This document shows positions 1-14,712 of a stretch of DNA of 64,000 nucleotides, piece by piece (within the stretch, counting starts at the first letter, position 1; every line of letters begins with the position of its first letter). This DNA comes from Falsirhodobacter xinxiangensis (GTDB lineage Bacteria; Pseudomonadota; Alphaproteobacteria; Rhodobacterales; Rhodobacteraceae): NCBI RefSeq assembly GCF_004959935.1, contig NZ_SMYN01000013.1:1-64000 (forward strand), written 5' to 3'. The notes below the pieces were generated by a model that did no database searches, was not told where the DNA came from, and saw only the letters and a list, made by a program, of their open reading frames with translations. The position numbers and the translations under genes were made by a program.

Positions 1-17
1 GCGGCACGGGTGCGCAT
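1..17 (-). CDS. 5' end of a gene cut by the left edge
   Basis: An ATG at 17 (minus strand) follows a GGAG ribosome binding site at 25-28 with 7-base spacing. It lies 24 bases beyond the stop codon of the ornithine-cyclodeaminase-family gene, in the same direction. Only about five codons (MRTRA) are visible, so the product cannot be named. The spacing suggests it is the next gene of the leftward catabolic operon. Confidence 0.5.
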
Positions 18-41
18 TCCAGTTCTCCTTTTCAACAACAT

Positions 42-974
42 TCAGGCGGCGGCGTTGGCGATCCAGATGGCGATCATCAGGTCGAGATGCGCGCCGCCGC
101 CATTCTTGAAGACCGTGATGTCTTCGGGCGACGTCCGGCCCTGCGTGTCGTCGCGGGCAAGGTCGTAAAGATCGCCAAGGACATCCTCGCGCCGGATCGC
201 GCCCGAGGCGATGGGGTCGATCAACTCGCCGATAAGATCGACGGTCGTCTCATAGCTGTCGACGAAGACCCGGCCCTTTGCCATCAGCGCGTCGTCGGCC
301 TCGCGCATCTCGGCGGTATAGGCGCCGATCAGGTCCACATGCGTGCCGGGCTGCACCCATTCGCCAAGGATGACGGGCTGTCTGGCCATGGTGGCGGTGC
401 TGACGATGTCGGCGCGGCCCACCTCGTCGGCCAGATCGTCCGCGACGACCAGCCGCCCGTTCAGATCCCCAAGGCTTGCGACCAGCGCTTCCGCCTGCTC
501 GCGCCGGCGTGCCCAGACCGCGATCCGTTCCAGATCCGGGAAAATCGCGTCATAGGCCCGCACGAGATTGGTCGCGAGCGTGCCCGCACCGACGATCAGA
601 AGGCGGCGGCTGTCCGGGCGAGCCAGAATCTGCGCGCCGAGGACCGAGTCCCCTGCCGTCTTGTATTCCGTGACCAGCGGCGCGTCGATGACCGCGGTCA
701 GATGGCCGTTATCGGCGTCATAGACCAGCATCCCACCCTGAATGCTCGGCAGCCCCTTCTGCGGGTTCGCATCATAGATGGTCACGGCCTTCACGCCGAA
801 TCCCAGCCCTTCGATATAGGCGCTGCGGTTCAGCAGCGTGCGGTCCGACGGCCCAAGGAACAGATCGCCCACCTGTGCCTTGGGGCGAAGATGCCCCTGC
901 CGAAGCGACGCAACCGCGCCATGCCAGTCGAGCCGCCCCGCGACGTCTTCATAGCCAATCATCTTCGGTCCCAT
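42..974 (-). CDS. Ornithine cyclodeaminase / mu-crystallin family protein, probable cyclic imino acid (pyrroline-2-carboxylate) reductase
   Basis: A 310-residue cytosolic protein of the OCD/mu-crystallin family. A substrate-side lobe (Lys62 region, Lys105-Thr106) precedes a Rossmann dinucleotide site GAGTLA at 129-134. Members either deaminate ornithine to proline or reduce cyclic ketimines such as delta1-pyrroline-2-carboxylate to L-proline. The family alone does not decide, but a proline-racemase-family gene and a ProC-like gene nearby favour the reductase role. The start at 974 was chosen because GAGGAG lies just upstream; an earlier in-frame start would run into the preceding gene. It follows the ETF-QO gene by 14 bases and is probably cotranscribed with it. 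Confidence 0.85.
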   Translation of the reverse strand: MGPKMIGYEDVAGRLDWHGAVASLRQGHLRPKAQVGDLFLGPSDRTLLNRSAYIEGLGFGVKAVTIYDANPQKGLPSIQGGMLVYDADNGHLTAVIDAPLVTEYKTAGDSVLGAQILARPDSRRLLIVGAGTLATNLVRAYDAIFPDLERIAVWARRREQAEALVASLGDLNGRLVVADDLADEVGRADIVSTATMARQPVILGEWVQPGTHVDLIGAYTAEMREADDALMAKGRVFVDSYETTVDLIGELIDPIASGAIRREDVLGDLYDLARDDTQGRTSPEDITVFKNGGGAHLDLMIAIWIANAAA

Positions 975-988
975 TCGCGGCTCCTCGG

Positions 989-2644
<1,656 letters not shown>

Positions 2645-2676
2645 GTGGCTGGCAAAGCTCCGCTGGCAGGCCTGGC

Positions 2677-3603
2677 TTACAGCTTCTGGGTCAGGTCGGG
2701 CAGGATCGTGAACAGATCGCCCACGAGGCTGTAATCGGCAACCTGAAGGATCGGAGCCTCCTCGTCCTTGTTGATGGCGACGATGACCTTGCTGTCCTTC
2801 ATCCCGGCAAGATGCTGAATCGCGCCAGAGATGCCGACCGCGACGTAAAGGCCGGGTGCCACGACCTTGCCGGTCTGTCCGACCTGCCAGTCGTTGGGCG
2901 CGTATCCGGCATCGACCGCCGCGCGCGAGGCGCCCACCGCCGCGCCGAGTTTGTCGGCCAGCGTCTCGATGATGGCGAAATTCTCTTTCGAGCCGACACC
3001 GCGCCCGCCGGACACGACCCGCGCCGCCGAGGTCAGCTCCGGCCGGTCGGAGGTCGCGACCTCGTCCGACTGCCAGGATGACAGGGCCGGATCGTCCGCA
3101 GACGCGGCATCGGCGATCGTGGCGGTGCCGCCATCGCCCGCGGCGTCGAAGCCTGCGGTGCGGATGGTCAGAACCTTTTGCGCATCGCGCGATCTGACCG
3201 TCTGGATCGCGTTGCCGGCATAGACCGGGCGTTCGAACTTTTGCGCGTCGATCACCGCCGACACGTCCGGGATCACCATGACATCCAAAAGCGCCGCCAC
3301 GCGGGGCATGACGTTCTTGGCGCCTGCTGTCGAGGGTGCCGCGATGTGATCGAACCCCGCGGCAAGCGAGACCAGCAGCGCCGCAACGGGTTCGGCCAGC
3401 CCATGGGCATATTGCTCGTGATCGGCCACCAGCACCTGCGCCACCCCGTCGATCGACGCAGCGGCCGTCGCCGCGCCCCGCGCGCCGGTCCCCGCACAAA
3501 GCACGGTGATATCGCCCAAGGGGCGCAGTGCCGTCACGGCCTTGGCCGTCGCGTCGCGGTTCAGATCGCCATTCGCGATCTCGCCCAGAAGAAGAACGCC
3601 CAT
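2677..3603 (-). CDS. etfA: Electron transfer flavoprotein alpha subunit
   Basis: A 308-residue alpha subunit of the FAD-containing heterodimeric ETF. The C-terminal half carries the FAD-binding signature: [12 protein letters not shown], then [14 protein letters not shown] and [13 protein letters not shown]. The N-terminal half is the variable domain that packs with EtfB. The start codon ATG (3603-3601) overlaps the etfB stop by one base (TGATG); a GTG one codon earlier (3606) is also possible. Overlap with etfB implies translational coupling and equal production of the two subunits. Confidence 0.96.
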
Positions 3604-4361
3604 CACACCACCCCGATCTCTTTCAACTTGCCGACCAGTTCGTCCACCGAAGCCAGCCGCACACCTGCCGCGCGGCCCTGCGGCTCTCGCGTGGCAAGGA
3701 TTTCCAGCCGGGGCGCGGGATCGACGCCGTAATCGGCGGCGGTCTTCTCCTCCAGCGGCTTCTTCTTGGCCTTCATGATGTTCGGCAGCGAAGCATAGCG
3801 CGGCTCGTTAAGGCGCAGGTCGGTCGTGATCACGGCGGGCAGCGCGACATCGATGGTCTGAAGACCGCCATCGACTTCCCGCGTGACCGTCGCGCGCCCG
3901 CCTGCAATCGCGATCTTCGACGCGAAGGTCGCCTGCCCCCAGCCCAGCAAAGCCGCCAGCATCTGGCCCGTCGCGCCCATGTCGCTGTCGATGGCCTGCT
4001 TGCCGGCGATGACCAACCCGGCGCCCTGCTCGGCCGCGACGGCGGCAAGGATCTTCGCGATCGCCAGCGGTTCCGTCGTCTGGTGGACGTCATCGGCGGC
4101 GACGACCAGAATGGCCCGATCCGCCCCCATCGCCAGCGCCGTCCGCAAGGTTTCCTGCGCCTGCCGGACGCCGATGGAGACGACGATCACCTCCTCGGCG
4201 ACCCCCTGCTCCTTCAGCCGGATCGCCTCCTCGACCGCGATCTCGTCGAAGGGGTTCATCGACATCTTGACGTCGGCCAGATCGACGCCGGAGCCGTCTG
4301 GTTTGACGCGCGGCTTCACGTTGTAGTCGATCACGCGCTTCACCGGCACGAGTATCTTCAT
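3603..4361 (-). CDS. etfB: Electron transfer flavoprotein beta subunit
   Basis: A 252-residue beta subunit of ETF, the AMP-binding partner of EtfA. It opens with [19 protein letters not shown], typical of the family, and has the EEAIRLKE and ADRAILV regions followed by the [11 protein letters not shown] segment. A GGAGG site lies just upstream of the ATG at 4361. The preceding dehydrogenase gene ends 14 bases upstream, so the flavoprotein dehydrogenase, its ETF acceptor and the ETF-quinone reductase lie in electron-flow order in one operon. Confidence 0.96.
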
Positions 4362-4375
4362 GCTCCCCTCCTCCG

Positions 4376-6412
4376 TTACAGATCCTTGACCAGCCGCAGC
4401 GCGTCATAGATCGCGGCATGGGTGTTGCGGGCGGCAACCGCATCGCCGATGCGGAACAGGCGGAACGTGCCTTCCGGGTTGGCGCGCACGTCTTGCAACC
4501 GTCCCGAGGTCAGCGCCTCGTAATCGACCTCGCCCAAATTCGACGAACGCGGCTTGAGGTCGAAATAAAGCTCGTCCAGCGGGCGGGTGCCGTGGTTGAC
4601 GACCACCTGATCGACCAGCCGGTCCCGCGTGACGCCGCCATAGTCGCTGCCAAGCGTCGCGCGAAGCTGGTTGCCGTCGCGCACCACCGACAGCAGACGC
4701 CATGTCACGGTAAAGGTCGTGTCCAGCTTTTGCAGGCTGCGCATATACGGCACCAGGTTCATCGCCATCACCTCGGGCGAGAAGGCCCGGTCCGGCGTCA
4801 CGATCTCGACCTTCGCGCCCGTCGATGCGATCGCATCCGCCGCCTGAAGCGCGGCATGATCGCCCGCATCGTCAAAGATCAGCACGTTCTGGCCGGGCTT
4901 CACATCGCCCGAAAGAATGTCCCACGCCGAACAGACCAGATCGTCGCCCGCGCTCAGCACTTCGGTATGGGGCAGACCGCCGGTCGCGATGATGACCTCG
5001 TCCGGGTTGGTCGCCAGAACGTCCGCGTCATCCGCGAAGGTGTTGAAGTTGAAGGTCACCCCGTGCTTTTCGCACATCGCCTGACGCCATGCGATGATCG
5101 AGATCATCTCGCGGCGGCGTTCCTGCAAGGCCGTCAGCCGGATCTGGCCGCCGGGTTGATCGGCGGCTTCGAACACCGTCACGGCGTGGCCGCGTTCGGC
5201 GGCAACCCGCGCCGCTTCCATCCCCGCAGGCCCCGCGCCGACGATGGTGATGCGTTTGCGCGCATCCGCCGCCGGGATGATCTGGGGCATCGTCTCCTCG
5301 CGCCCGGTGGCCGCGTTGTGAAGGCAGAACGCAAGGCCACCCTGATAGATGCGGTCGAGGCAGTAGTTCGCGCCGACGCAGGGGCGGATGTCGTCCTCGC
5401 GCTTTTCGATGATCTTCCGCACGAGATGCGGATCGGCCATGTGGGCGCGGGTCATGCCCACCATGTCGATCAGGCCCGCAGCGATGGCGTGGCGCGCGGT
5501 GGGAACGTCCGGGATCTTGGCGGCATGGAAGGTCGGAAAGTCCGTCGCCTTCTTGATCTGCCCGGCGAATTCAAGATGCGGCGCGTTGCGCATGCCCTGC
5601 ACCGGGATCACGTCGGTCAGGCCCGCGTCGGTGTCGATATGCCCCCTGACGACGTTCAGGAAGTCCACCAGCCCGCTGTCCTTCAGCTTCTGCGAAATCG
5701 CGATGCCGTCCTTCGCATCGAAACCACCCGGCAGATCCTCGTCGCCGGTATAGCGCACGCCAAGCAGGAAATCCTCGCCGCATCGTTCGCGGATGCCGCG
5801 CAGGATGTCAAAGGTGAAACGCAGCCGATTGTCGAGATCGCCGCCGTAAGGCCCGTCCAGATCGTTCGTCAGCGGCGACCAGAACTGGTCCATCAGGTGG
5901 CCGTAGGCCTGCAGCTCCAACCCGTCCAGGCCGGCCGCCTTCATCCGTTCCGCCGCATCGACATAATCGCCGATGATCCGCTGGATGTCCCAATCTTCCA
6001 TCTTCTTGGGGAAGGATCGGTGCGCCGCCTCGCGCTCGTGGCTGGGCGAGACGACGGGCAGCCAGTCGGCCTTGTCCCAACGGGTACGGCGGCCAAGGTG
6101 GGTCAGCTGAATCATCACGGCCGTGCCGTGATCGTGGCATTCGTCCGTCAGCTTCTTCATCCACCCGACGACCTCGTCCTTCCATGCGAGGATATTGTTA
6201 AACACGGGCGGGCTGTCACGCGAAACGGATGCCGAACCGGCGGTCATCGTAAGCGCGACGCCGGCTTTCGCTCGCTCCACATGATAGGCGCGATAGCGAT
6301 CCTTGGGCATTCCGTCCTCGGGATATGCCGGTTCATGGCTGGTGATCATGATCCGGTTGCGAAGCATGAGATGCTTGAGTTGGAAGGGCTGCAAGAGTGG
6401 ATCGTTCGACAT
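4376..6412 (-). CDS. Trimethylamine dehydrogenase-like / Old Yellow Enzyme family flavoprotein, probable N-methylproline-type demethylase
   Basis: A 678-residue two-part flavoprotein. Residues 1-340 form an FMN TIM barrel of the Old Yellow Enzyme type, with LTHLGRRT near 103-110 and the DQF.SPLTN segment near 175-183. Residues 385-678 form a FAD/NAD(P)-binding half with GAGPAG at 392-397. Between them lies the Fe-S motif region of trimethylamine and dimethylamine dehydrogenases. Here it contains Cys345, Cys351 and Cys363, but residue 348, where the relatives have the second cysteine, is alanine. Relatives oxidatively demethylate amines and donate electrons to ETF, which is encoded directly downstream. 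The proline-type genes around it suggest an N-methylproline or N-methyl-hydroxyproline substrate; that is inference. Start at Met 6412; an upstream in-frame start would add 13 unlikely residues. Confidence 0.85.
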
Positions 6413-6462
6413 GAATCTGCCTGTTGCGGTGGAGCGGTGTCGAGCCAACACTCCGCCATAAT

Positions 6463-6497
6463 GTTCACCACTGTCAAATTAAAAATCACAGGTGAAC
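6463..6497. promoter_or_regulatory. Inverted repeat between divergent genes, probable regulator operator
   Basis: GTTCACC at 6463-6469 and GGTGAAC at 6491-6497 form a perfect 7-base inverted repeat with a 21-base AT-rich spacer. It lies between the leftward dehydrogenase gene (start 6412) and the rightward TetR-type gene (start 6561). A TTGACA element for leftward transcription (complement of 6472-6477) lies inside it. The placement fits an operator for the adjacent regulator. Confidence 0.45.
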
Positions 6498-6560
6498 GCT
6501 TGAGGCCGCGAAGTGCACATAAGACTTGCGGGCATATTGGGCAGCCGATACCTCTCAGGG

Positions 6561-7199
6561 ATGGATCAGAAAAGTTCTACCGAAACCGGATGGCGCGGAT
6601 CGCGCGAGGGATGGCTCGACGCGGGCTATAAAGCCTTGATCGAGAACGGTATCGACGCGGTCAAGATCCTGCCTCTGGCCAAGCAGCTGAACCTGTCGCG
6701 CACAAGCTTCTATTGGTTCTTCGAGGATCGGGAATCGCTGCTGGCGGCGCTGCTTGACGGTTGGGAAGCCCGCACGACGACGCCGCTCGTCGCGTCCACG
6801 ACCCAGTATGCCGAAACGCAGACCGAGGCGATGTTCAACGTCATCGGCACGTTCATCGATGCGAAAGCCTTTGATTCCAAGCTGGAATTCGCTGTCCGCA
6901 GCTGGGCTTTGCAAGATGACAAGGTTGCCGAACGTGTTCGGCAGGCCGATGTCGTGCGCCTGCAGGCCTTGTCCGAGATGCTGACGCGGTGGGGCCATGA
7001 TGCCGTTCAGGCCGATGTCAGGGCGCGAACGGTCTATCTTGTCCAGATCGGATACATCTCGATGCAAGTGCAGGAAGATCTGGAGGTCCGGCTTCCAAGG
7101 GTCCCGCCATATGTCGAGATCTATACCGGGCAACCTGTGTCCTTGAACGAGATCGCCCGCTTCAACGGCAGATTCGGCAGGGTTTCCACGCTCACCTGA
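6561..7199 (+). CDS. TetR/AcrR family transcriptional regulator
   Basis: About 212 residues. The N-terminal helix-turn-helix (roughly 28-60, with LAKQLNLSRTSFYWFFEDRE) is typical of TetR-type repressors, and the C-terminal helical part is a divergent ligand-binding domain. ATG 6561 was preferred to a GTG 48 bases upstream because AGGG precedes it and the TetR fold begins soon after. The gene is divergent from the ETF/dehydrogenase operon, so it probably controls that operon. The ligand is unknown; a proline-type betaine or its demethylation product would fit the setting. Confidence 0.8.
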   Translation: MDQKSSTETGWRGSREGWLDAGYKALIENGIDAVKILPLAKQLNLSRTSFYWFFEDRESLLAALLDGWEARTTTPLVASTTQYAETQTEAMFNVIGTFIDAKAFDSKLEFAVRSWALQDDKVAERVRQADVVRLQALSEMLTRWGHDAVQADVRARTVYLVQIGYISMQVQEDLEVRLPRVPPYVEIYTGQPVSLNEIARFNGRFGRVSTLT

Positions 7200-7280
7200 C
7201 AAAGCACCGGGTTTGGACGCAACTGGCCTTTGCGTGGACGCGTCTGAACCCGCCTCATACAGCAGTGAACATTTTATTGT

Positions 7281-7290
7281 GCGTATACGA
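7281..7290. promoter_or_regulatory. GTATAC-centred palindrome upstream of the ProC-like gene, probable GntR operator
   Basis: GCGTATACGA, 55 bases upstream of the ProC-like start. The 11-base string CGTATACGATT recurs at 12558-12568 in front of the proX-like gene, next to a GntR/FCD regulator. GntR-family FCD repressors typically bind short GTATAC-type palindromes. Sharing of the site suggests both units belong to that regulator's regulon. Confidence 0.55.
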
Positions 7291-7344
7291 TTAATGCGGT
7301 AATCCTGCGGGATACGCGGAAGATCGACTGCACGGAGGATGGGC

Positions 7345-8139
7345 ATGAGGGTCGGCATCGCAGGAGGCACCGGATGGCTCGGCTTCGCGCTTGGCCGCCG
7401 CTTGCTGGATGATCGGATCGTGGCGCCCTCCGATCTGACGATACTAAATCGCAGCGGGCCGCGCGCCGACTATGCGGGGTATCGGGTGGGATGGGCCGCG
7501 GACCCCAAGGATTTGGTGCAGCGCAGCGATATCATCATCCTGTCCATTCGCCCCGAGACGTGGCGGACCTTCGACCTCGACGCCTCCGGAAAGCTCGTGC
7601 TGTCCTTCATGGCGGGCATCGATTGCGCCGATCTGGCGCGGTGTAAGGGTCGCATCGTCAGGGCAGTCCCGAACGCCGCCGCCGAGATCGGCGCGTCCTA
7701 TTCGCCGTGGTATGCTGGCCCGGGAATAACGGACGCTGACAAATCGGCCGTCACAAGGATACTGTCCTCCGTCGGGACTTCGGACGAACTTGAGGACGAA
7801 AAGCAGGTCGATGTCATGACCGCCCTGCCGGGATCGGGTGCCGCCTATCCCGCGCTTATGGCCGTTGCCATGTTCGAATACGCAAAATCGCAAGACGTGC
7901 CGCCTGACATCGCATGGCGGGCTGCAGAAGGCGCGATCTGCGGCGGCGCAGCCTTGTTGTCGGGGCGCATTTCCAACGCCCCTGCCCTTCTTGCCGCATA
8001 TCATGACTATCGCGGAACCACGGCGGCAGGTCTTTGCGCCGCCCAAGAATCCGGTTTCGACGCTTCGATAACAAACGCACTGTCCGCCGCGACGCGAAAG
8101 GCGCGTGACATGAGCTTTCGCAATCAGTCCGATGACTGA
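7345..8139 (+). CDS. Pyrroline-5-carboxylate reductase family protein (ProC-like)
   Basis: A 264-residue ProC-family NAD(P)-dependent reductase. The Rossmann motif AGGTGWLG lies at 6-13, RAVPNAAAEIG at 106-116 matches the conserved RxMPN region, PGSGAAY lies at 162-168, and the GTTAAGL signature at 224-230. Classical members reduce pyrroline-5-carboxylate to proline. Inside this cluster it may act on a related cyclic imine, since a housekeeping proC would normally sit elsewhere. ATG 7345 was chosen over ATG 7339 because GGAGG (7334-7338) is 6 bases from 7345 but touches 7339. Confidence 0.8.
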   Translation: MRVGIAGGTGWLGFALGRRLLDDRIVAPSDLTILNRSGPRADYAGYRVGWAADPKDLVQRSDIIILSIRPETWRTFDLDASGKLVLSFMAGIDCADLARCKGRIVRAVPNAAAEIGASYSPWYAGPGITDADKSAVTRILSSVGTSDELEDEKQVDVMTALPGSGAAYPALMAVAMFEYAKSQDVPPDIAWRAAEGAICGGAALLSGRISNAPALLAAYHDYRGTTAAGLCAAQESGFDASITNALSAATRKARDMSFRNQSDD

Positions 8140-8218
8140 CATGCGGGGATAACCCGCACAACGCCGGCAACTGATCGGCAGGACCGCAACGCGGCCAACC
8201 ACCAACAGGAGAGTTGAG

Positions 8219-8329
8219 ATGAACATGCCAGACCTTGCCATCCCGAGGATACCAGCACCGACCGATCGAAATCGGATCAAGCGCATCGTTTGGGCCGCAT
8301 CCAGCACTCCCGGCCGCAGGCACGAATGA
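8219..8329 (+). CDS. Possible 36-residue small ORF or leader peptide containing five prolines
   Basis: ATG 8219 follows AGGAG (8208-8212) with 6-base spacing and opens a 36-codon frame ending at TGA 8329. It encodes five prolines, four within the first 14 residues (at 4, 9, 12 and 14), and no recognisable domain. It lies between the ProC-like gene and a terminator-like hairpin that precedes the transporter genes. It could be an attenuation leader peptide, a small protein, or a chance frame; only the ribosome binding site and the placement support it. Confidence 0.35.
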   Translation: MNMPDLAIPRIPAPTDRNRIKRIVWAASSTPGRRHE

Positions 8330-8341
8330 CAGCCTGACGAC

Positions 8342-8368
8342 CGGCGCGCCCGCGCCGTCCTTTTCCTT
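8342..8368 (+). terminator. Terminator-like hairpin before the transporter genes
   Basis: CGGCGC (8342-8347), a GCCC loop and GCGCCG (8352-8357) form a 6-base-pair GC stem followed by the pyrimidine tract TCCTTTTCCTT. It could end the ProC-like transcript or act as an attenuator for the permease gene starting at 8401. The T-run is interrupted, so it is weaker than a classical terminator. Confidence 0.5.
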
Positions 8369-8400
8369 ATGTCGTAGCCATACCCACCAGTGAGGTCGCC

Positions 8401-9288
8401 ATGACTTGGCTTACGGAATTCCCACAGATCGACAACGGCATGCTCCGCGATCTGAAACGCGCCATCGATGATGGTTTCCGCAATTTCTCCCGCTCCTATG
8501 GTGACGCGATCGAGGCCGTGTTCGATCCGCTGCGCCACTTCCTGTCCTGGTCGGAAAATCTGCTGACCGATACGCCCTGGCCCATCGTGCTGCTGGTCGT
8601 GGGCCTTCTTGCCTGGGGGGCAAGCCGCAGCTTTCGCATCGTCTTCGCCTGTGTCGGCACGCTGTGCCTGATCGGTGCCTTCGGGATGTGGGAGGACACG
8701 ATGAAGACCATTTCGATGATCCTCACCTCCACGTTGATGGCGATCGCGCTTGGCATTCCGATCGGGGTGCTGATGTCGCGCTCCGACCGGGTTCAGTCCT
8801 TCGTCAGCCCGATCCTCGACGTGATGCAGACGATGCCGCCCTTCGTCTATCTCATCCCCGTCGTGATGCTTCTGGGCATCGGCAAGGTTCCCGGCCTCAT
8901 CGCCGTCGTGATCTATGCGCTGCCGCCCATGATCCGTCTGACCAATCTGGGGATCAGGCAGGTCGACGGCGAAGTGCTCGAGGCGGCGGATGCGTTCGGC
9001 TCGTCCCGCTGGCAACGGCTCGTGAAGGCGGAGTTGCCATTGGCCATGCCCACCATCATGGCAGGCATCAACCAGACTATCATGATGGCACTGGCCATGG
9101 TCGTCATCGCCTCGATGATCGGTGTGGAAGGCCTCGGGCTGCCGGTCCTTCGCGCCATCTCGAACCAATACTTCACGCTTGGCCTGTTCAACGGACTTGC
9201 CATCGTCGGCATCGCGATCCTGTTCGATCGGGTCAGCCAGGCTTTCGGCCACCGTCTTCAAAAGCACCGCGGAGGCCACAATGTCTGA
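8401..9288 (+). CDS. Glycine/proline betaine-type ABC transporter permease (ProW-like)
   Basis: A 295-residue inner-membrane permease of the ProW/OpuAB family. A soluble N-terminal stretch (about 1-55) precedes roughly seven membrane segments. The EAA loop lies in the region EVLEAADAFGSSRWQRLVKAELPLAMPTI, which contacts the ATPase. It overlaps the ATPase gene by 8 bases, so the two are coupled. With the separately encoded binding protein at 12598 it makes a complete quaternary amine importer. Confidence 0.92.
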   Translation: MTWLTEFPQIDNGMLRDLKRAIDDGFRNFSRSYGDAIEAVFDPLRHFLSWSENLLTDTPWPIVLLVVGLLAWGASRSFRIVFACVGTLCLIGAFGMWEDTMKTISMILTSTLMAIALGIPIGVLMSRSDRVQSFVSPILDVMQTMPPFVYLIPVVMLLGIGKVPGLIAVVIYALPPMIRLTNLGIRQVDGEVLEAADAFGSSRWQRLVKAELPLAMPTIMAGINQTIMMALAMVVIASMIGVEGLGLPVLRAISNQYFTLGLFNGLAIVGIAILFDRVSQAFGHRLQKHRGGHNV

Positions 9289-10309
9289 TCCGATCGGCAT
9301 CCAGATCCGCAATCTCTACAAGATCTTCGGCCCGCGCGGGGGCGAGTTCGTCAGCGCCGTGCAGGGCGGCATGTCCAAGCAGGAACTGAACGACAAGCAC
9401 CGGCACGTCCTTGGCCTGCGCGACATCAACCTCGACATTCCCGCGGGCCGCATTCAGGTGATCATGGGGCTGTCGGGATCGGGCAAATCCACCCTGATCC
9501 GCCATATCAACCGCCTGATCGACCCCACCGCGGGTGAGATCATGATCGAAGGGCAGGACGTCGTGCGCATGCCCCCCGCGGCATTGCGAAGCTTCCGTCG
9601 CCACAAGACCGCGATGGTGTTCCAGAAATTCGGACTTCTTCCGCACCGCACCGTGCTGAACAACGTCGGATATGGTCTGGAAGTCCAAGGCATGGACGCT
9701 GCCGCCCGCAACGAGATCGCCATGCGCTGGATCGAGCGTGTCGGCCTTCGCGGGTTCGAGACGAAATACCCCAGCCAGCTTTCCGGCGGGATGCAGCAGC
9801 GCGTCGGACTTGCCCGCGCGCTGACCAACGATGCGCCGATCCTGTTGATGGACGAGGCGTATTCCGCGCTCGACCCGCTGATCCGGTACGACATGCAGAC
9901 GGTGTTGCTGGACCTGCAAAGCGAGGTCCGCAAGACCATCGTCTTCATCACGCATGATCTGGACGAAGCCCTGCGCATCGGCGACCGGATCGCGCTGCTT
10001 CGCGACGGCTCGATCATCCAGCAGGGCACGGGACAGGATATCGTCCTTCGCCCCGCCGACGACTATGTGTCGAACTTCGTGCAGCATGTGGATCGCGGCA
10101 AGGTCGTGCAGGTCGGCTCGATCATGGAGCCGATGTCGGCCAGCAACACCAATGGACATGCCATCCCCGAGCATACGACCCTTTCCGAAGCCCTGCGCCA
10201 GATGCTGAGCAGCAGGCTTCAGGTGATCGACGTGAATGACATGGCAAATCGCCCGGTCGGACAGCTTTCGCTGGAACGGGCGATCGCGGTTTCGGCAGGC
10301 GCAGCCTGA
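9281..10309 (+). CDS. Glycine/proline betaine-type ABC transporter ATP-binding protein (ProV-like)
   Basis: A 342-residue ATPase. Walker A GLSGSGKST lies at 63-71, the signature LSGGMQQR at 167-174 and Walker B ILLMDEA at 187-193. The insert before Walker A (AVQGGMSKQELNDKH region) is characteristic of ProV/OpuAA. The C-terminal accessory part (about 265-342) is shorter than the paired CBS domains of E. coli ProV. ATG 9281 has GGAGG at 9271-9275 and lies inside the end of the permease gene. Confidence 0.93.
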   Translation: MSDPIGIQIRNLYKIFGPRGGEFVSAVQGGMSKQELNDKHRHVLGLRDINLDIPAGRIQVIMGLSGSGKSTLIRHINRLIDPTAGEIMIEGQDVVRMPPAALRSFRRHKTAMVFQKFGLLPHRTVLNNVGYGLEVQGMDAAARNEIAMRWIERVGLRGFETKYPSQLSGGMQQRVGLARALTNDAPILLMDEAYSALDPLIRYDMQTVLLDLQSEVRKTIVFITHDLDEALRIGDRIALLRDGSIIQQGTGQDIVLRPADDYVSNFVQHVDRGKVVQVGSIMEPMSASNTNGHAIPEHTTLSEALRQMLSSRLQVIDVNDMANRPVGQLSLERAIAVSAGAA

Positions 10310-10319
10310 GCCTGCCCGC

Positions 10320-11786
10320 ATGACGAACGTGCGACAAAGCCTCGATGGGCAGTCCTTCGACGTCGTCATCGTCGGCGCGGGGGCGGTAGGCTGCACGACC
10401 GCGCGGGAATTGGCCGCGCGCGGATACCGAACGCTCCTTCTGGACCGAGCCGACATCGGCTCGGGAACCTCCTCACGCTCCAGCAGGATGCTGTATTCCG
10501 GCCTGGGTTATCTGGCCGTGCGCTATCCCCTTTGGCAGATGGCGCTTCATCCGGTCGATATGATGCGTCGGCTGATCTATGCGCGCGACGTGATGCGCTG
10601 CCGCGCCGAACTGGTCGAGACGATGCCGCAGCACCTGACGCGGCACCGTTTCTTCTATCCCTTCCGGCGGGGCGATCGGTATCCGCCTTGGCTGGTCGAT
10701 ATCGGCTTTCGCATGATGGAGATGCTTGGCGGTTGGCGCGTGCCGCTTCATTACCGCCGATCGTCGCGCGCCGAGGCCTCCAGCGGGTTGGTCGATCGCC
10801 TCGGTCCGGTGACGGGCATCGGCAGTTTCGATGAATACATGTATGCTTGGCCCGAGCGTACCTGCGTCGATACCGCGTTGGATGCCGAACGCCGGGGTGC
10901 CACGATCCGAACCTATACCGCCGTCGTGGGGGTCGAACGCGAGGCATCGGGCTGTACGCTGCGGCTGGAGGATCGAAGCCCGGACCGCGCCGGACCGGCG
11001 ACCGTATCCGCCAAGATGATCGTGAATGCCGCCGGGCCATGGATAGACCGTATTGCCGGAGATGCGGGCGCCCCGCGCGTCCGGGGTATAAAAGGCGTCA
11101 ATGTGATGGTGCGCCTGCCCGAAAGCTTTCATGGGCAGGGGCTAGAGGCATTCTCAAGCAAGGGCGAGCCGTTCTACGTCTTCCCGTGGCGCGATCTGCA
11201 TTTCGTCGGCCCGACGGAAACCGTCGTCACGGATGATCCGGACGACGTCTCGGTGTTGCCCGAGGAGGTGGATTACGTTCTGTCCGAGGCAAATCGGCTG
11301 TTCCCCGACCTTCACCTGTCGCGGAACGACGTGGCCCATTGCTGGTGCGGTGTCCGGCCGACCTCCACCATTGATGGCAAGACCACCGCCCTTCCCGTCC
11401 GCGTGGTAGAGCGCGACGGATCGCCCGGTTTGATCGCGGTCACGGGTTCGACGATCATGCTTCACCGACACGCCGGACGGCTTGCCGCGCGAGCGGTCGA
11501 AAAGCGGCTTGGCAAGAGAGGTGCCGGTCCTTCGGGGTCGATCCCTCTGGGTCCGCCCGACGTGACCGACATCCTGCGCGACGAACATGTCGTCAGGCTG
11601 GGTGACCTCGTCCGCCGCAGATTGCCGAACGGGCTGGACCCCGACCTAGGGCGCGATGGGATCGAGGATCTGTCGCACACAGCGGCGGCCGCGCTCGGCT
11701 GGTCCGAAACCCGCCGCGCGGCCGAGGTCGCCGAGTTTCTTGCCGACACGGCCAAGATCTATCCAGGGGCCAAGACCCTGCCCTAG
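10320..11786 (+). CDS. FAD-dependent oxidoreductase, GlpD-like (DAO superfamily)
   Basis: A 488-residue flavoprotein. Residues near 15-50 hold the FAD site (VIVGAGAVG), followed by GSGTSSRSSRMLYSGLGYL, which aligns with the GlpD motif GTSS.ST.LIHGGLRYL. The C-terminal helical part resembles the GlpD accessory domain. The arginine of GLRYL is glycine and the histidine before it is tyrosine, so glycerol-3-phosphate is doubtful as substrate. It starts 10 bases after proV and is probably cotranscribed. It may oxidise a proline-derived or hydroxylated intermediate; that is inference. The end shares four bases (CTAG) with the convergent GntR gene. Confidence 0.75.
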   Translation: MTNVRQSLDGQSFDVVIVGAGAVGCTTARELAARGYRTLLLDRADIGSGTSSRSSRMLYSGLGYLAVRYPLWQMALHPVDMMRRLIYARDVMRCRAELVETMPQHLTRHRFFYPFRRGDRYPPWLVDIGFRMMEMLGGWRVPLHYRRSSRAEASSGLVDRLGPVTGIGSFDEYMYAWPERTCVDTALDAERRGATIRTYTAVVGVEREASGCTLRLEDRSPDRAGPATVSAKMIVNAAGPWIDRIAGDAGAPRVRGIKGVNVMVRLPESFHGQGLEAFSSKGEPFYVFPWRDLHFVGPTETVVTDDPDDVSVLPEEVDYVLSEANRLFPDLHLSRNDVAHCWCGVRPTSTIDGKTTALPVRVVERDGSPGLIAVTGSTIMLHRHAGRLAARAVEKRLGKRGAGPSGSIPLGPPDVTDILRDEHVVRLGDLVRRRLPNGLDPDLGRDGIEDLSHTAAAALGWSETRRAAEVAEFLADTAKIYPGAKTLP

Positions 11787-12457
11787 AACCGGGCCCCGGG
11801 CAGAAAGCGGTGGAGCGATTTGTTCGCACCCATGATGTGGTCATAGGTCAGACGCGAGGCCAGCCCCGCGTCCCCCGCCCGGCACGCATCAAGGATCGCG
11901 TGATGTTCCTCGTTCGCGATCCCTTTGCCGACGGACAGCGTCAACTGGATGCGAAGATAGCGTTCCAGCCTGACGTTGATCGTCCGGATCAGTTCGACCA
12001 GATAGGGTCGCTGCGCGTCCAGATAGAGGCTGCTGTGGAACTGCCAGTTCAGCGCCGACCACTGCGCCACATCCCCCGCCTCGTCGAAGGCGGCGCAGCA
12101 GGCGCTGGCACGCGCAAGGCTTTCGGCGGTCATCATCGGCACCGAAAAGCCAATCGCATTCGATTCGAGGATCGCCCGGGTCTCGAATATCTGCGCGATC
12201 TCGGGATCGGAAACCGCACGAACCACGACGCCGCGATTTGGAATGAAGGCGACAAATCCTTCGGCCTCAAGGCGTTTCAGCGCCTCGCGAACCGGGATCT
12301 TGCTGACGTTGAACCGGCGCGCCACCTCGTCCTGACGTATCGGCTCCCCATCGTTGAGCGATCCGTCGGCGATCGCACCGCGGATGTAGTTCAGAATCGC
12401 GTCAGCCGTGGATGATCCTGCCTCGGGTTCCGGTTTGATGAGCGATTGGGTAGTCAT
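11783..12457 (-). CDS. GntR family transcriptional regulator (FCD subfamily)
   Basis: A 224-residue regulator with an N-terminal winged helix (about 18-85, with RQDEVARRFNVSKIPVREALKRLE) and a C-terminal FCD ligand-binding domain (about 95-215, with the NWQFHSSLY histidine). FCD members are mostly repressors of amino acid, sugar acid and hydroxyproline pathways. The gene is divergent from the proX-like gene. Two GTATAC palindromes, at 12557 and 7281, mark likely targets. The start at 12457 follows AGGA; a longer in-frame extension to 12607 would cross the neighbouring promoter. Confidence 0.9.
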   Translation of the reverse strand: MTTQSLIKPEPEAGSSTADAILNYIRGAIADGSLNDGEPIRQDEVARRFNVSKIPVREALKRLEAEGFVAFIPNRGVVVRAVSDPEIAQIFETRAILESNAIGFSVPMMTAESLARASACCAAFDEAGDVAQWSALNWQFHSSLYLDAQRPYLVELIRTINVRLERYLRIQLTLSVGKGIANEEHHAILDACRAGDAGLASRLTYDHIMGANKSLHRFLPGARF

Positions 12458-12556
12458 GGGCCAATCCTTAAAATTTCGCAGTAAGGGCCGCCTTGCTCGG
12501 GGTGCCCTCGACGAACTTGACATAACAGTCAAGTTGGCAAACTCTGATGTCAGGAC

Positions 12557-12566
12557 TCGTATACGA
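12557..12566. promoter_or_regulatory. Perfect palindrome TCGTATACGA, probable GntR operator
   Basis: This 10-base perfect palindrome lies 31 bases upstream of the proX-like start and 99 bases upstream of the divergent GntR start. It shares CGTATACGATT with the site at 7282-7292. It is immediately followed by an AT-rich stretch (TATAATAAAAC) that may contain the -10 region of the proX-like gene, so bound repressor would block transcription. Confidence 0.6.
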
Positions 12567-12597
12567 TTCCTATAATAAAACATAACAGGGGTCTGCC

Positions 12598-13593
12598 ATG
12601 AAAACACTGCTTGCTTCTACAGCACTGTCTGTAGTCTGTGCTGCCGGGGTTGCCAGCGCTCAAGACTGCGGTTCCGTCAGCATTGCCAACATGAACGTGC
12701 AAAGCGCCGAAATCCTTGCCAACATCGACAAGATCATTCTTGAAGAAGGCTACGACTGCGACGTTTCGCTGGTGCCGGGCGATACGGTTCCGACAGGAAC
12801 GTCCATGGTCGAAAAGGGTGGTCCGGACCTTTCGCCGGAAACCTGGGTGGACCTCTTGCCCGAGATCATTCCGCGCGGTCTGGAAGAAGGCAAGATCGTT
12901 CAGGGCGCCCCTGCTTTGCATGACGGCGGTGTTCAAGGTTGGTGGATTCCGAAATACGTCGCCGACGCCCATCCCGACATCAAGACCGTGGATGACGCGC
13001 TCGCGCATCCCGAACTTTTCCCGCACCCGGACGATCCGTCGCAGGGGGCAATCTTCAACGGCGCGCAGGGCTGGGGCGCGACGGTCGTCACCGGACAGCT
13101 GTTCAAGGCCTATGACGCCGAGAACAAGGGCTTCGGGCTTGTCGAACCGGGATCGGCCGCAGGTCTGGACGGCCTGATCGCCCGCGCCTACGAGCGCGAG
13201 CAAGGGTTTATCACCTATTACTGGGCGCCGACGGGTCTGCTGGCGAAATACCCTCTGGTCAAGCTGGAGGCGTCGGTCGAACACGATCCGGCGGAATGGA
13301 CGCGGTGCATCACCGTCGTCGATTGCCCCGACCCCAAGGTCAGCGCATGGCCGGTCGATCGCGTCTATTCCATCATGACCAAGAGCTTCAGCGAAAGTAC
13401 CAGCCCCGAGGTGGTCAAATACCTTGATACGCGCAGTTGGGGTAACGAAAAGGTCGCCGAAATCCTTGCCTGGATGACTGACAACCAGGCCACCGGCGAA
13501 GATGCCGCCTATCACTTCCTGGAAGAAAACGCCGATATCTGGACGCCTTGGGTATCCCCCGACGCGGCAGAGAAAATCTCCTCGGCACTTTGA
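12598..13593 (+). CDS. Glycine/proline betaine-type ABC transporter substrate-binding protein (ProX-like)
   Basis: A 331-residue periplasmic protein of the OpuAC/ProX family with a Sec signal peptide (about 1-21, cleaved after VASA). Aromatic-rich segments (ETWVDLLP, GGVQGWWIPKYV, FITYYWAP, NADIWTPWV) are typical of the cage that holds trimethylammonium or dimethylammonium groups. It completes the importer with the permease and ATPase at 8401-10309, although it is expressed from a separate promoter carrying the GntR palindrome. Substrate specificity within the betaines cannot be read from sequence. Confidence 0.92.
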   Translation: MKTLLASTALSVVCAAGVASAQDCGSVSIANMNVQSAEILANIDKIILEEGYDCDVSLVPGDTVPTGTSMVEKGGPDLSPETWVDLLPEIIPRGLEEGKIVQGAPALHDGGVQGWWIPKYVADAHPDIKTVDDALAHPELFPHPDDPSQGAIFNGAQGWGATVVTGQLFKAYDAENKGFGLVEPGSAAGLDGLIARAYEREQGFITYYWAPTGLLAKYPLVKLEASVEHDPAEWTRCITVVDCPDPKVSAWPVDRVYSIMTKSFSESTSPEVVKYLDTRSWGNEKVAEILAWMTDNQATGEDAAYHFLEENADIWTPWVSPDAAEKISSAL

Positions 13594-13659
13594 TCCATCA
13601 GCCCCGCCCGAGCACCGGGCGGGGCACCTCCAACTCCCCGAACAGATCGAGAAATCCTC

Positions 13660-14712
13660 ATGGCCTTCAAGCGTATGATTCACGCGGTGGATACGCATGC
13701 CGGAACGCCGATGCGCGTCATCACCGGCGGCGTGCCGAAGATCCCCGGTGCCAGCGTCTATGAAAAGATGAAGTGGCTGCAGCAGAACGACGACCAGCTG
13801 CGCCTTCTCATGCTCCGCGAGCCGCGCGGCTATCCGGCGCATTGCTGCAACATCATCGTGCCCCCTTCGCATCCCGAGGCGGATGCCGGGTATGTGATCA
13901 TGGAGCAGATCGAATACCCGGTCATGTCGGGGGGAAACACGATCTCGGTCGTGACCGTCCTTCTGGAAACCGGGATGCTGCCGATGAAGGAACCCGTGAC
14001 GGAACTGAAACTGGAAGCGCCTGCGGGGCTGATCCGCATCACCGCGGAATGCAAGGACAACAAGGTCAAGAGCGTCACGTTCAAGAACGTTCCGGCTTTC
14101 GCCGCACATCTGGATGCCGAAATCGACGTGCCGCATCTGGGCAAGGTCCGCGTGGATGTCGGCTGGGGCGGCATGTTCTATGTCATCGCCGACGTCCGCC
14201 AGTTCAAAGGGCTGGAGATCATCCCCGACCATGGAAAGGAGATTGCCCGCATTTCCTCGATGATCCGGGAAGCGGCCATCGAACAGCTGCCCGTCGCGCA
14301 TCCCGACTACCCCGGAGTGGGCATCACCATCTCGCAGCTTTCCGGCCCGTCGCAGGACCCGAACGCCGATTGGAAGAACGCGGTCACGATGTCCACCGGC
14401 AATTTCTCGTGGGATAACCCCGCGACCTGGACGGGGGCACTCGATCGTTGCCCATGCGGGACGGGCACTTGCGCCAAAATGGCGACGCTGCATGCCAAGG
14501 GGGAATTGCCGCTTGGCCAGAAGTTCCGCCATCAGGGCATTCTGGGAAACATCTATACGGGGCAACTGGTCGAAGAAACGACGATCGGCGATCGCAAGGC
14601 CGTCGTTCCGACCGTCAGCGGGACAAGCTGGATCTTCGGCTACAATACCATCGTGCTTGATCACGACGATCCCTTCACCGAAGGATTCACTGTCGGGGAC
14701 ACCTGGGCCTGA
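13660..14712 (+). CDS. Proline racemase superfamily enzyme with Ser/Cys pair (hydroxyproline epimerase or trans-3-hydroxyproline dehydratase type)
   Basis: A 350-residue PLP-independent enzyme. The two catalytic positions are Ser90 (in VMSGGNT) and Cys266 (in CPCGTGT). Proline racemases and classical 4-hydroxyproline 2-epimerases have Cys/Cys, and the known trans-3-hydroxy-L-proline dehydratases of the human type have Cys/Thr. Ser/Cys members have been assigned to hydroxyproline epimerisation or dehydration. A dehydratase would feed delta1-pyrroline-2-carboxylate to the OCD-family reductase at 42-974. It lies 66 bases after the proX-like gene and is probably cotranscribed with it. Confidence 0.88.
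   Translation: MAFKRMIHAVDTHAGTPMRVITGGVPKIPGASVYEKMKWLQQNDDQLRLLMLREPRGYPAHCCNIIVPPSHPEADAGYVIMEQIEYPVMSGGNTISVVTVLLETGMLPMKEPVTELKLEAPAGLIRITAECKDNKVKSVTFKNVPAFAAHLDAEIDVPHLGKVRVDVGWGGMFYVIADVRQFKGLEIIPDHGKEIARISSMIREAAIEQLPVAHPDYPGVGITISQLSGPSQDPNADWKNAVTMSTGNFSWDNPATWTGALDRCPCGTGTCAKMATLHAKGELPLGQKFRHQGILGNIYTGQLVEETTIGDRKAVVPTVSGTSWIFGYNTIVLDHDDPFTEGFTVGDTWA

What the first reader, a model, noticed from the sequence alone, without database searches (positions are those of the whole stretch)
1..14712. Island for catabolism of a proline-type betaine or hydroxyproline
The genes found together are: a betaine-type importer (ProX, ProW, ProV), a trimethylamine-dehydrogenase-like flavoprotein, EtfA/B, ETF-QO, an OCD-family enzyme, a ProC-like enzyme, a GlpD-like oxidase and a Ser/Cys proline-racemase-family enzyme, with two regulators. 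Established family knowledge links each to methylated or cyclic imino acid metabolism. The reading is uptake, N-demethylation, epimerisation or dehydration, and reduction to proline. The exact substrate and the order are inference. A Rieske-type betaine demethylase, needed for a dimethylated betaine, is not seen in the window.
Basis: partly seen in the sequence, partly recalled or inferred. Interest (0 to 1): 0.75.

Follow-up and report, generated by a model that had tools for sequence, protein, structure and literature searches.

The report
Proline betaine (stachydrine) degradation gene cluster
This is a stretch of bacterial genes for taking up proline betaine, a plant and marine stress solute, and stripping it down to proline; the kind of cluster is already known, but one of its enzymes, from the proline-racemase family, belongs to a branch whose exact job is still open.

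Summary
The gene list is confirmed: 13 genes in window 42-14712. The flavoprotein at 4376-6412 is an HpbA-type N-methyl-L-proline N-demethylase (81-92% identical to plasmid proteins annotated HpbA). Ten of the other twelve genes have counterparts at 60-81% in the hpb cluster of Paracoccus pantotrophus. So the inferred pathway is import, Rieske demethylation to N-methylproline, HpbA demethylation with electrons leaving by EtfAB and ETF-QO, then proline. A side branch (OCD-type reductase, proline-racemase-family enzyme) probably handles hydroxyprolines. Two operator-like boxes were found: a TetR-type box over the hpbA promoter (40 of 49 hpbA upstream regions), and a palindrome ATCGTATACGAT tied to the GntR regulator, which marks promoters of proline-racemase-family genes in relatives (24 of 26 sites, targets chosen after first sight) and two promoters here. 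Open: the reaction of the Ser/Cys proline-racemase-family enzyme (13660-14712) and the roles of the ProC-like and 'GlpD-like' proteins. No island signature was seen; the window's left edge is a contig end. A rearranged member of a known kind; modest interest.

The parts
1..17 (-). start of a further gene, cut by the contig end (ATG CGC ACC CGT GCC ...), with a ribosome-binding site between it and the OCD stop
   Evidence: sequence read; window starts at C5:1
42..974 (-). A: OCD-family enzyme, probable delta1-pyrroline-2-carboxylate reductase
   Evidence: best NCBIfam PRK06141 271 bits, below cut-off 322; 63% to OCD of P. pantotrophus hpb cluster
989..2644 (-). B: ETF-ubiquinone oxidoreductase
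   Evidence: Fer4_ETF_QO and ETFQO_UQ-bd; 59% to ETF-QO in the Rhizobium AB2/73 cluster; no counterpart in the P. pantotrophus cluster
2677..3603 (-). C: EtfA, electron transfer flavoprotein alpha
   Evidence: 78% to cluster counterpart
3603..4361 (-). D: EtfB, electron transfer flavoprotein beta
   Evidence: 81%
4376..6412 (-). E: HpbA-type N-methyl-L-proline N-demethylase, flavoprotein of the Oxidored_FMN / trimethylamine-dehydrogenase group
   Evidence: 81-92% to the 19 listed plasmid proteins annotated HpbA; 89% to P. pantotrophus HpbA
6460..6477 (-). operator-like box TTGACA-N4-TGAACATT overlapping a -35-like element of hpbA, assigned to TetR F
   Evidence: 40 of 49 upstream regions with at most 2 mismatches; only perfect copy in the genome
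6561..7199 (+). F: TetR-family regulator, divergent from hpbA
   Evidence: TetR_N; beside hpbA in 16 of 18 hpbA-centred family loci read
7256..7273 (+). degenerate (3-mismatch) second TetR-type box upstream of G
   Evidence: at this stringency such matches occur by chance (mean 1.62 per shuffled window)
7280..7291 (.). GntR-type box TGCGTATACGAT upstream of the G-H-I-J genes
7339..8139 (+). G: ProC-like (P5C-reductase family) protein, recurrent partner of hpbA/TetR; role unassigned
   Evidence: P5CR_dimer; TIGR00112 127 bits, below cut-off 197; 60% to cluster counterpart
8401..9288 (+). H: ProW-type permease
   Evidence: 76%
9281..10309 (+). I: ProV-type ATPase
   Evidence: TIGR01186 346 bits, above cut-off 326.6; 71% to cluster counterpart
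10320..11786 (+). J: DAO-family flavoprotein, probable dehydrogenase (the 'GlpD-like' protein); start codon is my choice
   Evidence: Pfam DAO; 65% to FAD-dependent oxidoreductase of the P. pantotrophus cluster; 4 of 394 family genomes including this one at E <= 1e-110
11783..12457 (-). K: GntR/FCD regulator, probable HypR-type; start codon is my choice
   Evidence: FCD and GntR domains; 68% to the GntR beside a proline-racemase-family gene in P. pantotrophus
12556..12567 (.). GntR-type box CTCGTATACGAT in the K/L divergent promoter
   Evidence: TCGTATACGA occurs once in the whole genome
12598..13593 (+). L: ProX-type substrate-binding protein (DmpX-like)
   Evidence: OpuAC; best solved relative 7yle, which is RnDmpX; pocket residues compared
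13660..14712 (+). M: proline-racemase-family enzyme of Ser90/Cys266 type; hydroxyproline epimerase or dehydratase, reaction open
   Evidence: Pro_racemase; no NCBIfam cut-off met; catalytic positions

Best explanation
This is a rearranged hpb/stc-type cluster for proline betaine (stachydrine) catabolism with a hydroxyproline branch. ProX-ProW-ProV import a cyclic betaine. A Rieske-type demethylase encoded on another contig removes the first methyl group to give N-methylproline. HpbA oxidises the remaining N-methyl group (released as formaldehyde), leaving L-proline, and passes electrons to EtfAB and by ETF-QO to ubiquinone. The OCD-type enzyme reduces delta1-pyrroline-2-carboxylate, formed from trans-3-hydroxyproline by a proline-racemase-family dehydratase or from a D-proline-type compound by flavoprotein J, to L-proline. 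TetR F represses hpbA through a box over its -35 element. GntR K, probably HypR-like, controls ProX-M and the G-ProW-ProV-J genes through a CGTATACG palindrome. Shown by sequence: gene identities, synteny, the Rieske pair, the boxes. Inferred: substrate, flux direction, which regulator binds which box. Guess only: reactions of G, J and M.
For: HpbA identity 81-92% to 19 listed plasmid proteins annotated HpbA. The P. pantotrophus pPAN2 locus carries the same set plus Rieske pair, hpbD and fdhA; window proteins are 60-89% identical to it, except M (39%) and ETF-QO (no match). The own-genome Rieske oxygenase is 76% and its reductase 80% identical to that locus, LysR 64%; the oxygenase matches structures 3vca/4qup over residues 5-412, E 1.1e-219 (3vca is used as stachydrine demethylase in PMC4014116). 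StcD is called an N-methylproline demethylase in PMC12239276. L045 and L056 hold hpbA, TetR, G, transporter, MLD2, M and a Rieske pair at 70-81% in one 21-kb stretch. Rhizobium AB2/73 holds transporter, G, TetR, hpbA, EtfBA, J, ETF-QO, formaldehyde genes and a Rieske pair in one locus, though that Rieske pair is only 40-41% to the Paracoccus one. TetR box: at most 2 mismatches in 40 of 49 distinct hpbA upstream regions, against 1 of 49 when the same sequences are read backwards. GntR box: 24 of 26 CGTATACG sites lie in 65 target promoters (1.5% of bases), while the best of 23 other palindromes of the same composition has 3 there. All 17 sequences with a local K-type GntR have the box, and the 4 with a box but no local K have a relative of the P. 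pantotrophus GntR at 84-94% elsewhere in their genome. HypR is a known GntR repressor of hydroxyproline genes, with ornithine cyclodeaminase predicted in its regulon in P. denitrificans (PMC5343134).
Against: No hpbD orthologue in the genome (best 30%), so a hydroxyproline-betaine epimerisation step is not supported. The Rieske genes are on another contig and neither box was found in their promoter, so co-regulation is unproven. ProX L is most like a DMSP-binding protein. HpbA lacks one of the four iron-sulphur cysteines seen in the aligned dienoyl-CoA reductase, although this holds in all 50 distinct HpbA sequences. In the 18 best-matching family loci read around hpbA, ETF-QO was near it in 1, a G-type gene in 3, transporter genes in 2 and a Rieske gene in 7. 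The GntR target promoters were defined after the box had been seen at them, and many Rhizobium loci are close relatives.
Confidence: 0.82

Rival explanations
1. The cluster's main substrate is a hydroxyproline betaine (or 3-hydroxyproline betaine), and M, the OCD reductase and J work on the demethylated hydroxyproline, so proline betaine is secondary. (Not exclusive of the best explanation.)
For: M, OCD and J lie in the same cluster, and M shares a GntR box with other proline-racemase-family genes in relatives. Peteryoungia has hpbA, OCD, transporter, DHDPS, ALDH, DAAO, M and a Ser/Thr proline-racemase-family gene together. Tabrizicola (L069) has M with DHDPS, ALDH, DAAO and an HpbD at 70%.
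Against: No HpbD orthologue in this genome. The genome's own 4-hydroxyproline genes lie elsewhere (contig 8: epimerase above its NCBIfam cut-off, with DAAO, ALDH, DHDPS relatives). The Rieske is Stc2-like.
Confidence: 0.25
2. M is a trans-3-hydroxy-L-proline dehydratase (Ser/Cys version) that feeds the P2C reductase.
For: A P2C-reductase-type gene (MLD2 in 20, OCD in 5) is in the same stretch in 25 of 49 M loci. In Rhizobium M and MLD2 are divergent with the GntR box between them. Of 13 genomes with an M-MLD2 locus searched, six have no relative of the P. pantotrophus dehydratase-type enzyme above 45% identity and two more only 47-48%. Best NCBIfam model is T3LHypDht, 328 bits. Cys at the second position is not a clean mark of an epimerase: relatives 85-87% identical to the P. 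pantotrophus Ser/Thr enzyme also carry Cys there (L216, L217).
Against: Score is below the model cut-off of 550. The second catalytic residue is Cys as in described epimerases, not Thr (PMC4364671; PMC4113996). A Ser/Thr gene is beside M in L045, L056, L062, L104 and L215, where M would be redundant.
Confidence: 0.4
3. M is a 4-hydroxyproline 2-epimerase of the Ser/Cys kind, like Agrobacterium vitis B9JQV3.
For: Same catalytic pair and Asn motif as the Ser/Cys epimerase described in PMC4113996 (motif). The DHDPS, ALDH, DAAO trio lies with M in 5 of 49 loci and in Peteryoungia.
Against: Those three genes are absent beside M here, and this genome has another epimerase with them on contig 8. Score 250.5 bits against cut-off 376 for PRK13971. 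The trio is missing in 44 of 49 M loci, some of them cut by contig ends.
Confidence: 0.35
4. The transporter serves DMSP or general betaine osmoprotection and is only next to the catabolic genes.
For: Best solved relative of L is the DMSP binder RnDmpX. A DMSP-lyase-family gene lies beside hpbA in several relatives. In 16 of 18 family loci read, hpbA has no such transporter near it.
Against: Of the eight RnDmpX pocket residues five are kept, but Trp35 is Val, Glu113 is Gln and Ala153 is Gly, which fits a different, bulkier ligand. Transporter genes lie with hpbA in Paracoccus and rhizobial loci.
Confidence: 0.12

Closest known systems
hpb cluster of Paracoccus (P. pantotrophus pPAN2, read here; the hpb pathway of Zhao 2013 and Kumar 2014, not read, known from recall and from their citation in PMC4113996)
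   Same: HpbA, TetR, EtfBA, ProXWV, ProC-like G, flavoprotein J, OCD and GntR with 60-89% identity
   Different: Window lacks hpbD, fdhA and the Rieske pair (Rieske is elsewhere in the genome), has its own ETF-QO, and carries proline-racemase-family enzyme M (39% to the Paracoccus one) in a different gene order
stc (stachydrine) genes of Sinorhizobium meliloti: Stc2 Rieske demethylase and StcD N-methylproline demethylase
   Same: Stc2-type Rieske oxygenase in the genome; same activity class by annotation for HpbA
   Different: StcD itself was not fetched, so the HpbA-StcD relation is not tested
Proline racemase superfamily (ProR, 4HypE, T3LHypD)
   Same: Pro_racemase domain over full length, Ser/Asn and Cys active-site motifs
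   Different: M matches no NCBIfam cut-off and is 31-40% identical to the own-genome and Paracoccus types compared; a wider Ser/Cys group at 52-64% exists in other family genomes, function not known to me
HypR regulons (GntR, hydroxyproline)
   Same: GntR-FCD regulator beside hydroxyproline-type genes, palindromic box
   Different: The published proteobacterial HypR motif is in a figure and could not be compared; here a box also sits before the betaine transporter genes
DmpX DMSP-binding protein (7YLE)
   Same: Three of four cage Trp, Thr64 and Tyr200 equivalents kept
   Different: Trp35, Glu113 and Ala153 replaced by Val, Gln and Gly

Membership tests
HpbA N-methyl-L-proline N-demethylase | High identity over full length to annotated HpbA | tested here: met
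   81.4-91.6% over 678 residues to the 19 listed plasmid proteins annotated HpbA in Paracoccus, Rhodobacter and Thioclava
HpbA N-methyl-L-proline N-demethylase | Enzyme activity on N-methylproline | not testable with these tools
   needs purified protein
Proline betaine (hpb/stc) catabolic cluster | Betaine ABC importer, NMP demethylase and ETF genes together | tested here: met
Proline betaine (hpb/stc) catabolic cluster | Stc2/Hpb-type Rieske oxygenase and reductase in the genome | tested here: met
   contig 56, oxygenase 76%, reductase 80% to the Paracoccus pair; 3vca E 1.1e-219
Hydroxyproline betaine pathway | HpbD betaine 2-epimerase | tested here: not met
   best genome match 30% identity over the full length, E 6.6e-17
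trans-3-hydroxy-L-proline dehydratase | NCBIfam T3LHypDht score above cut-off; Thr at second catalytic position | tested here: not met
   328 of 550 bits; Cys266. This lowers 'is a named T3LHypD', not 'works like one'; one search shows the Thr/Cys position varies among close relatives
4-hydroxyproline 2-epimerase | NCBIfam epimerase cut-off | tested here: not met
   PRK13971 250.5 of 376, HdxProlEpimProt 151.9 of 450, PRK13970 123.9 of 442
4-hydroxyproline 2-epimerase (Ser/Cys kind) | Ser with Asn three residues on, and Cys on the other face | tested here: met
   Ser90, Asn93, Cys266 (motif described in PMC4113996)
Delta1-pyrroline-2-carboxylate reductase (OCD superfamily) | NCBIfam PRK06141 / LhpI cut-off | tested here: not met
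   271 of 322 and 97.8 of 400 bits; context favours the function
Glycerol-3-phosphate dehydrogenase GlpD | NCBIfam GlpD cut-off and C-terminal domain | tested here: not met
   142.5 of 360 bits; no C-terminal GlpD domain among the Pfam matches, DAO is the full-length one
Pyrroline-5-carboxylate reductase ProC | TIGR00112 cut-off | tested here: not met
   127.1 of 196.75 bits; P5CR_dimer domain present
HypR regulator | Orthology to S. meliloti HypR and same operator | not tested
   HypR sequence and motif not available here; only family (GntR-FCD) and gene context agree

The most novel reading that the evidence does not exclude
M and its relatives (46 of 49 found loci at 79-88% identity, across alpha-, beta- and gammaproteobacteria; Ser90/Cys266) are a proline-racemase-family branch with a reaction not on the current list: for example 2-epimerisation or dehydration of a 3-hydroxyproline isomer, or of an N-methylated (hydroxy)proline left after the Rieske step. 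The reason is that this genome already holds a 4-hydroxyproline epimerase above its family cut-off (contig 8) and a Ser/Thr dehydratase-type enzyme (contig 3), so neither known role obviously needs filling.
Probability: 0.18. Interest if true: 0.55.

Novelty: new member of a known kind. Interest (0 to 1): 0.33.

Why it matters
It narrows the substrate class of a cluster that can be misread as glycerol or ornithine metabolism, and shows that the missing Rieske step is on another contig. It gives two testable operator sequences, and points to one widely shared enzyme branch whose reaction could not be named here.

Tried and rejected
Contig 3 and contig 5 were tested as neighbours, because contig 3 begins with a Ser/Thr proline-racemase-family gene. 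There is no exact end overlap, and the gene cut off at window base 1 starts with different codons, so adjacency is not claimed. The TetR box was tested as a link to the two Rieske loci: not found in their promoters. The DMSP reading of the transporter was weakened by the pocket comparison. GlpD was rejected for J by score and domain. J's neighbourhood in three other family genomes gave little: in one (L212) an OCD-family gene at 39% follows the J relative, the other two show no cluster genes I recognise as partners. Genomic-island origin was not supported by GC. Structure prediction was not run: sequence already placed every protein in a family, and a fold would not settle substrates. Kumar 2014 (mBio) could not be read (not held). 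Paper search found no paper; one search found 323 papers with at least one term, and the 25 listed concern other meanings of the terms. That says nothing about print elsewhere.

Results against the reading: in the 18 best-matching hpbA loci, ETF-QO, G and transporter are mostly missing; no HpbD orthologue; J's 60.5% relative in Acinetobacter LoGeW2-3 lies outside any hpb cluster, beside RidA, cupin, MFS and aldehyde dehydrogenase genes; 32 of 53 sequences have neither GntR box nor local K; of 16 genomes searched, 10 had a match at E <= 1e-30, five of them at 83-94%, one at 55% and four at 35-43%; L036 has an 83% K relative but only a degenerate box. The target promoters were defined after the box positions were known. 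The Rhizobium loci are close relatives, so 24 sites are not 24 independent events; I judge about eight independent gene arrangements (my own grouping, no call).

Full report
What is there. The 64-kb window is contig C5:1-64000 of a 3.97-Mb assembly in 80 contigs. Its first 14.7 kb hold thirteen genes with open frames. Minus strand, left to right: OCD family (42-974), ETF-QO (989-2644), EtfA, EtfB, and an Oxidored_FMN flavoprotein (4376-6412). Then TetR (6561-7199, plus), a ProC-like gene, ProW, ProV and a DAO flavoprotein (7339-11786, plus), a GntR-FCD regulator (11783-12457, minus), and ProX and a proline-racemase-family gene M (12598-14712, plus). Start codons that differ from the ORF list are my choice from the translations. 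The contig end lies just beyond OCD, and a further gene begins there and is cut.

The key enzyme. The flavoprotein is 81.4-91.6% identical over its full length to the 19 listed plasmid proteins annotated 'N-methyl-L-proline N-demethylase HpbA' in Paracoccus, Rhodobacter and Thioclava. The name comes from the record annotation; no assay was seen. Matches at E <= 1e-200 occur in 202 of 394 family genomes searched, so hpbA itself is common. TetR sits beside it in 16 of the 18 hpbA-centred family loci that I fetched and mapped (these were the best-matching genomes, not a random draw, and two more loci in that fetch were centred on M). A feature of the whole family: Cys345, Cys351 and Cys363 are invariant in 50 of 50 distinct sequences, but the position that holds a further iron-sulphur cysteine in the aligned dienoyl-CoA reductase is Ala in 49 and Gly in 1.

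The cluster is a known kind. The P. pantotrophus plasmid locus holds GntR, a proline-racemase-family gene, OCD, fdhA, hpbD, Rieske reductase and oxygenase, LysR, FAD oxidoreductase, P5CR-like, ProV, ProW, ProX, TetR, hpbA, a DMSP-lyase-family gene, EtfB and EtfA, and further on a second ProX. Identities to the window proteins: HpbA 89, EtfB 81, EtfA 78, ProW 76, ProV 71, TetR 69, GntR 68, ProX 67 (to the second ProX; 58 to the first), J 65, OCD 63, G 60, but M only 39 and ETF-QO no match. Sinorhizobium americanum (L045) and Ensifer BR816 (L056) hold hpbA, TetR, G, transporter, MLD2, a second ProX, M, a Ser/Thr proline-racemase-family gene, GntR and a Rieske pair (oxygenase 80-81%, reductase 70-73%) within 21 kb. 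The Rhizobium AB2/73 plasmid holds transporter, G, TetR, hpbA, EtfBA, J, ETF-QO, the formaldehyde genes GSH-FDH, FghA and Gfa, and a Rieske pair; in BG6 ETF-QO appears only in short pieces. The Rieske pair of these two plasmids is only 39-41% identical to the Paracoccus one.

The missing Rieske step. Searching the own genome with the P. pantotrophus Rieske oxygenase gave two loci: contig 56 (oxygenase 76%, reductase 80%, LysR 64%) and contig 45 (56 and 65%). The contig-56 oxygenase matches 3vca and 4qup over residues 5-412 with E 1.1e-219. PMC4014116 uses 3vca as its starting model for stachydrine demethylase (passages seen). PMC12239276 states that stcD encodes an N-methylproline demethylase in stachydrine catabolism (passages seen). 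So import, first and second demethylation and electron disposal all have candidate genes. The hydroxyproline-betaine epimerase HpbD does not: best match 30%.

Transport. The best solved relative of ProX L is 7yle, which PMC10030565 identifies as RnDmpX with DMSP (passages seen). Of the eight pocket residues listed there, L keeps Thr64, Trp84, Trp152, Tyr200 and Trp202, and replaces Trp35 by Val, Glu113 by Gln and Ala153 by Gly. I read this as a binder of a quaternary or sulphonium compound with room for a bulkier group; that is inference.

Regulation by TetR. Among 49 distinct upstream regions of hpbA genes, 40 carry TTGACA-N4-TGAACATT or TGTACATT with at most 2 mismatches, 32 of them perfect; the same sequences read backwards give 1 of 49. 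The nine without it are L039, L125, L128, L129, L131, L132, L134, L173 and L176. The box overlaps a -35-like TTGACA. The window copy at 6460-6477 is perfect and is the only perfect copy among 9 genome hits with up to 2 mismatches. A three-mismatch copy at 7256 before G is no better than chance.

Regulation by GntR. Upstream of K and several of its relatives lies the palindrome ATCGTATACGAT. In 53 sequences (window, the 49 loci, L085, L087, L104; 1,045,358 bases) CGTATACG occurs 26 times, 24 of them within 250 bases upstream of M, ProX2 or P. pantotrophus-type proline-racemase-family genes (15,789 bases). The best of 23 other palindromes of the same composition has 3 sites there. The targets were defined after the positions were known, so this is a description with a composition control, not a blind test. 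One of the two sites outside is the window's own second site, before the G-ProW-ProV-J genes; the other lies inside a coding region. All 17 sequences with a local K-type gene have the box. Four have the box but no local K, and each of those genomes has a relative of the P. pantotrophus GntR elsewhere at 84-94%. HypR, a GntR repressor, is known to control hydroxyproline genes, and ornithine cyclodeaminase is predicted in its regulon in P. denitrificans (PMC5343134, passages seen). K is therefore probably HypR-like, so the regulon is not a new concept. Whether the box equals the published motif could not be checked. A search for the box letters in the paper library gave 133 papers, and the 12 listed are unrelated.

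The side branch. The own genome has four proline-racemase-family genes: M (Ser90/Cys266), one on contig 3 (Ser/Thr; 70% to the P. pantotrophus enzyme), one on contig 78 (Cys/Cys), and one on contig 8 (aligned as Cys/Gly), which passes the 4-hydroxyproline-epimerase cut-off with 522 against 376 bits and lies with DAAO, ALDH and DHDPS relatives at 59-72%. PMC4113996 (Results, Discussion and accession list read; its tables of activities are not held) reports a Ser/Cys epimerase, a Ser/Thr dehydratase and promiscuous members, and reductases of the OCD and MLD2 families that make L-proline. Around M, 20 of 49 loci have an MLD2 and 5 others an OCD, 12 have hpbA at 74% or more, and 5 have the DHDPS-ALDH-DAAO trio (several loci are cut by contig ends). 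Of 13 genomes with an M-MLD2 locus searched, six have no relative of the P. pantotrophus dehydratase-type enzyme above 45% and two only 47-48%. This favours a dehydratase. The Cys, and five loci where M sits beside a Ser/Thr gene (L045, L056, L062, L104, L215), favour an epimerase. But the Cys argument is weak: two Rhizobium relatives 85-87% identical to the P. pantotrophus Ser/Thr enzyme carry Cys there. I leave it open: dehydratase 0.4, 4-hydroxyproline epimerase 0.35, other 0.25.

Unassigned. G (ProC-like) recurs with hpbA and TetR at about 40-60% identity but scores below the ProC cut-off. J is rare (4 of 394 family genomes, this one included, at E <= 1e-110). It sits directly before ETF-QO in Rhizobium AB2/73, just before M in Caballeronia pedi, beside an MLD2 relative at 50% in Amaricoccus (L068), before an OCD-family gene in L212, and beside a RidA gene, without hpb genes, in Acinetobacter LoGeW2-3. 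The simplest guess is a D-amino-acid or imino-acid dehydrogenase that makes an imine for the OCD/MLD2 reductase; nothing here tests that.

Verdict. Observation confirmed, interpretation supported and narrowed. Novelty: a new, rearranged member of a known kind of cluster.

Noticed in passing
window:4376-6412, residues 345-363: HpbA family lacks one of the iron-sulphur cysteines of the dienoyl-CoA-reductase-type motif: Ala (49) or Gly (1) in 50 distinct sequences, with the other three cysteines invariant.
   Followed up: partly
L098:7476-9380 (own genome contig 8): A proline-racemase-family enzyme above the 4-hydroxyproline-epimerase cut-off aligns with Gly in place of the second catalytic Cys; could be real or an alignment artefact.
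   Followed up: no
L216, L217 (Rhizobium genomes of L064, L061): Relatives 85-87% identical to the P. pantotrophus Ser/Thr proline-racemase-family enzyme read Ser/Cys, so the Thr/Cys position changes between close relatives.
   Followed up: no
L085:18097-18678, also L099, L100, L214: A DMSP-lyase-family gene lies directly after hpbA in several relatives; it is not among the window's cluster genes. Its role in betaine catabolism is unclear.
   Followed up: partly
L085:20815-25413, L043, L062, L065, L075: A recurrent LysR - alcohol dehydrogenase - mandelate-racemase-family set, often next to ProX2 and M, suggests a further betaine or hydroxyproline branch not among the window's cluster genes.
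   Followed up: partly
L095:8031-10366 (own genome contig 45): A second Rieske oxygenase/reductase pair, 56 and 65% identical to the Paracoccus pair; substrate unknown.
   Followed up: no
L215:14496-14719 (Rhizobium sp. BG6): Only short pieces of an ETF-QO gene follow the J homologue there.
   Followed up: no
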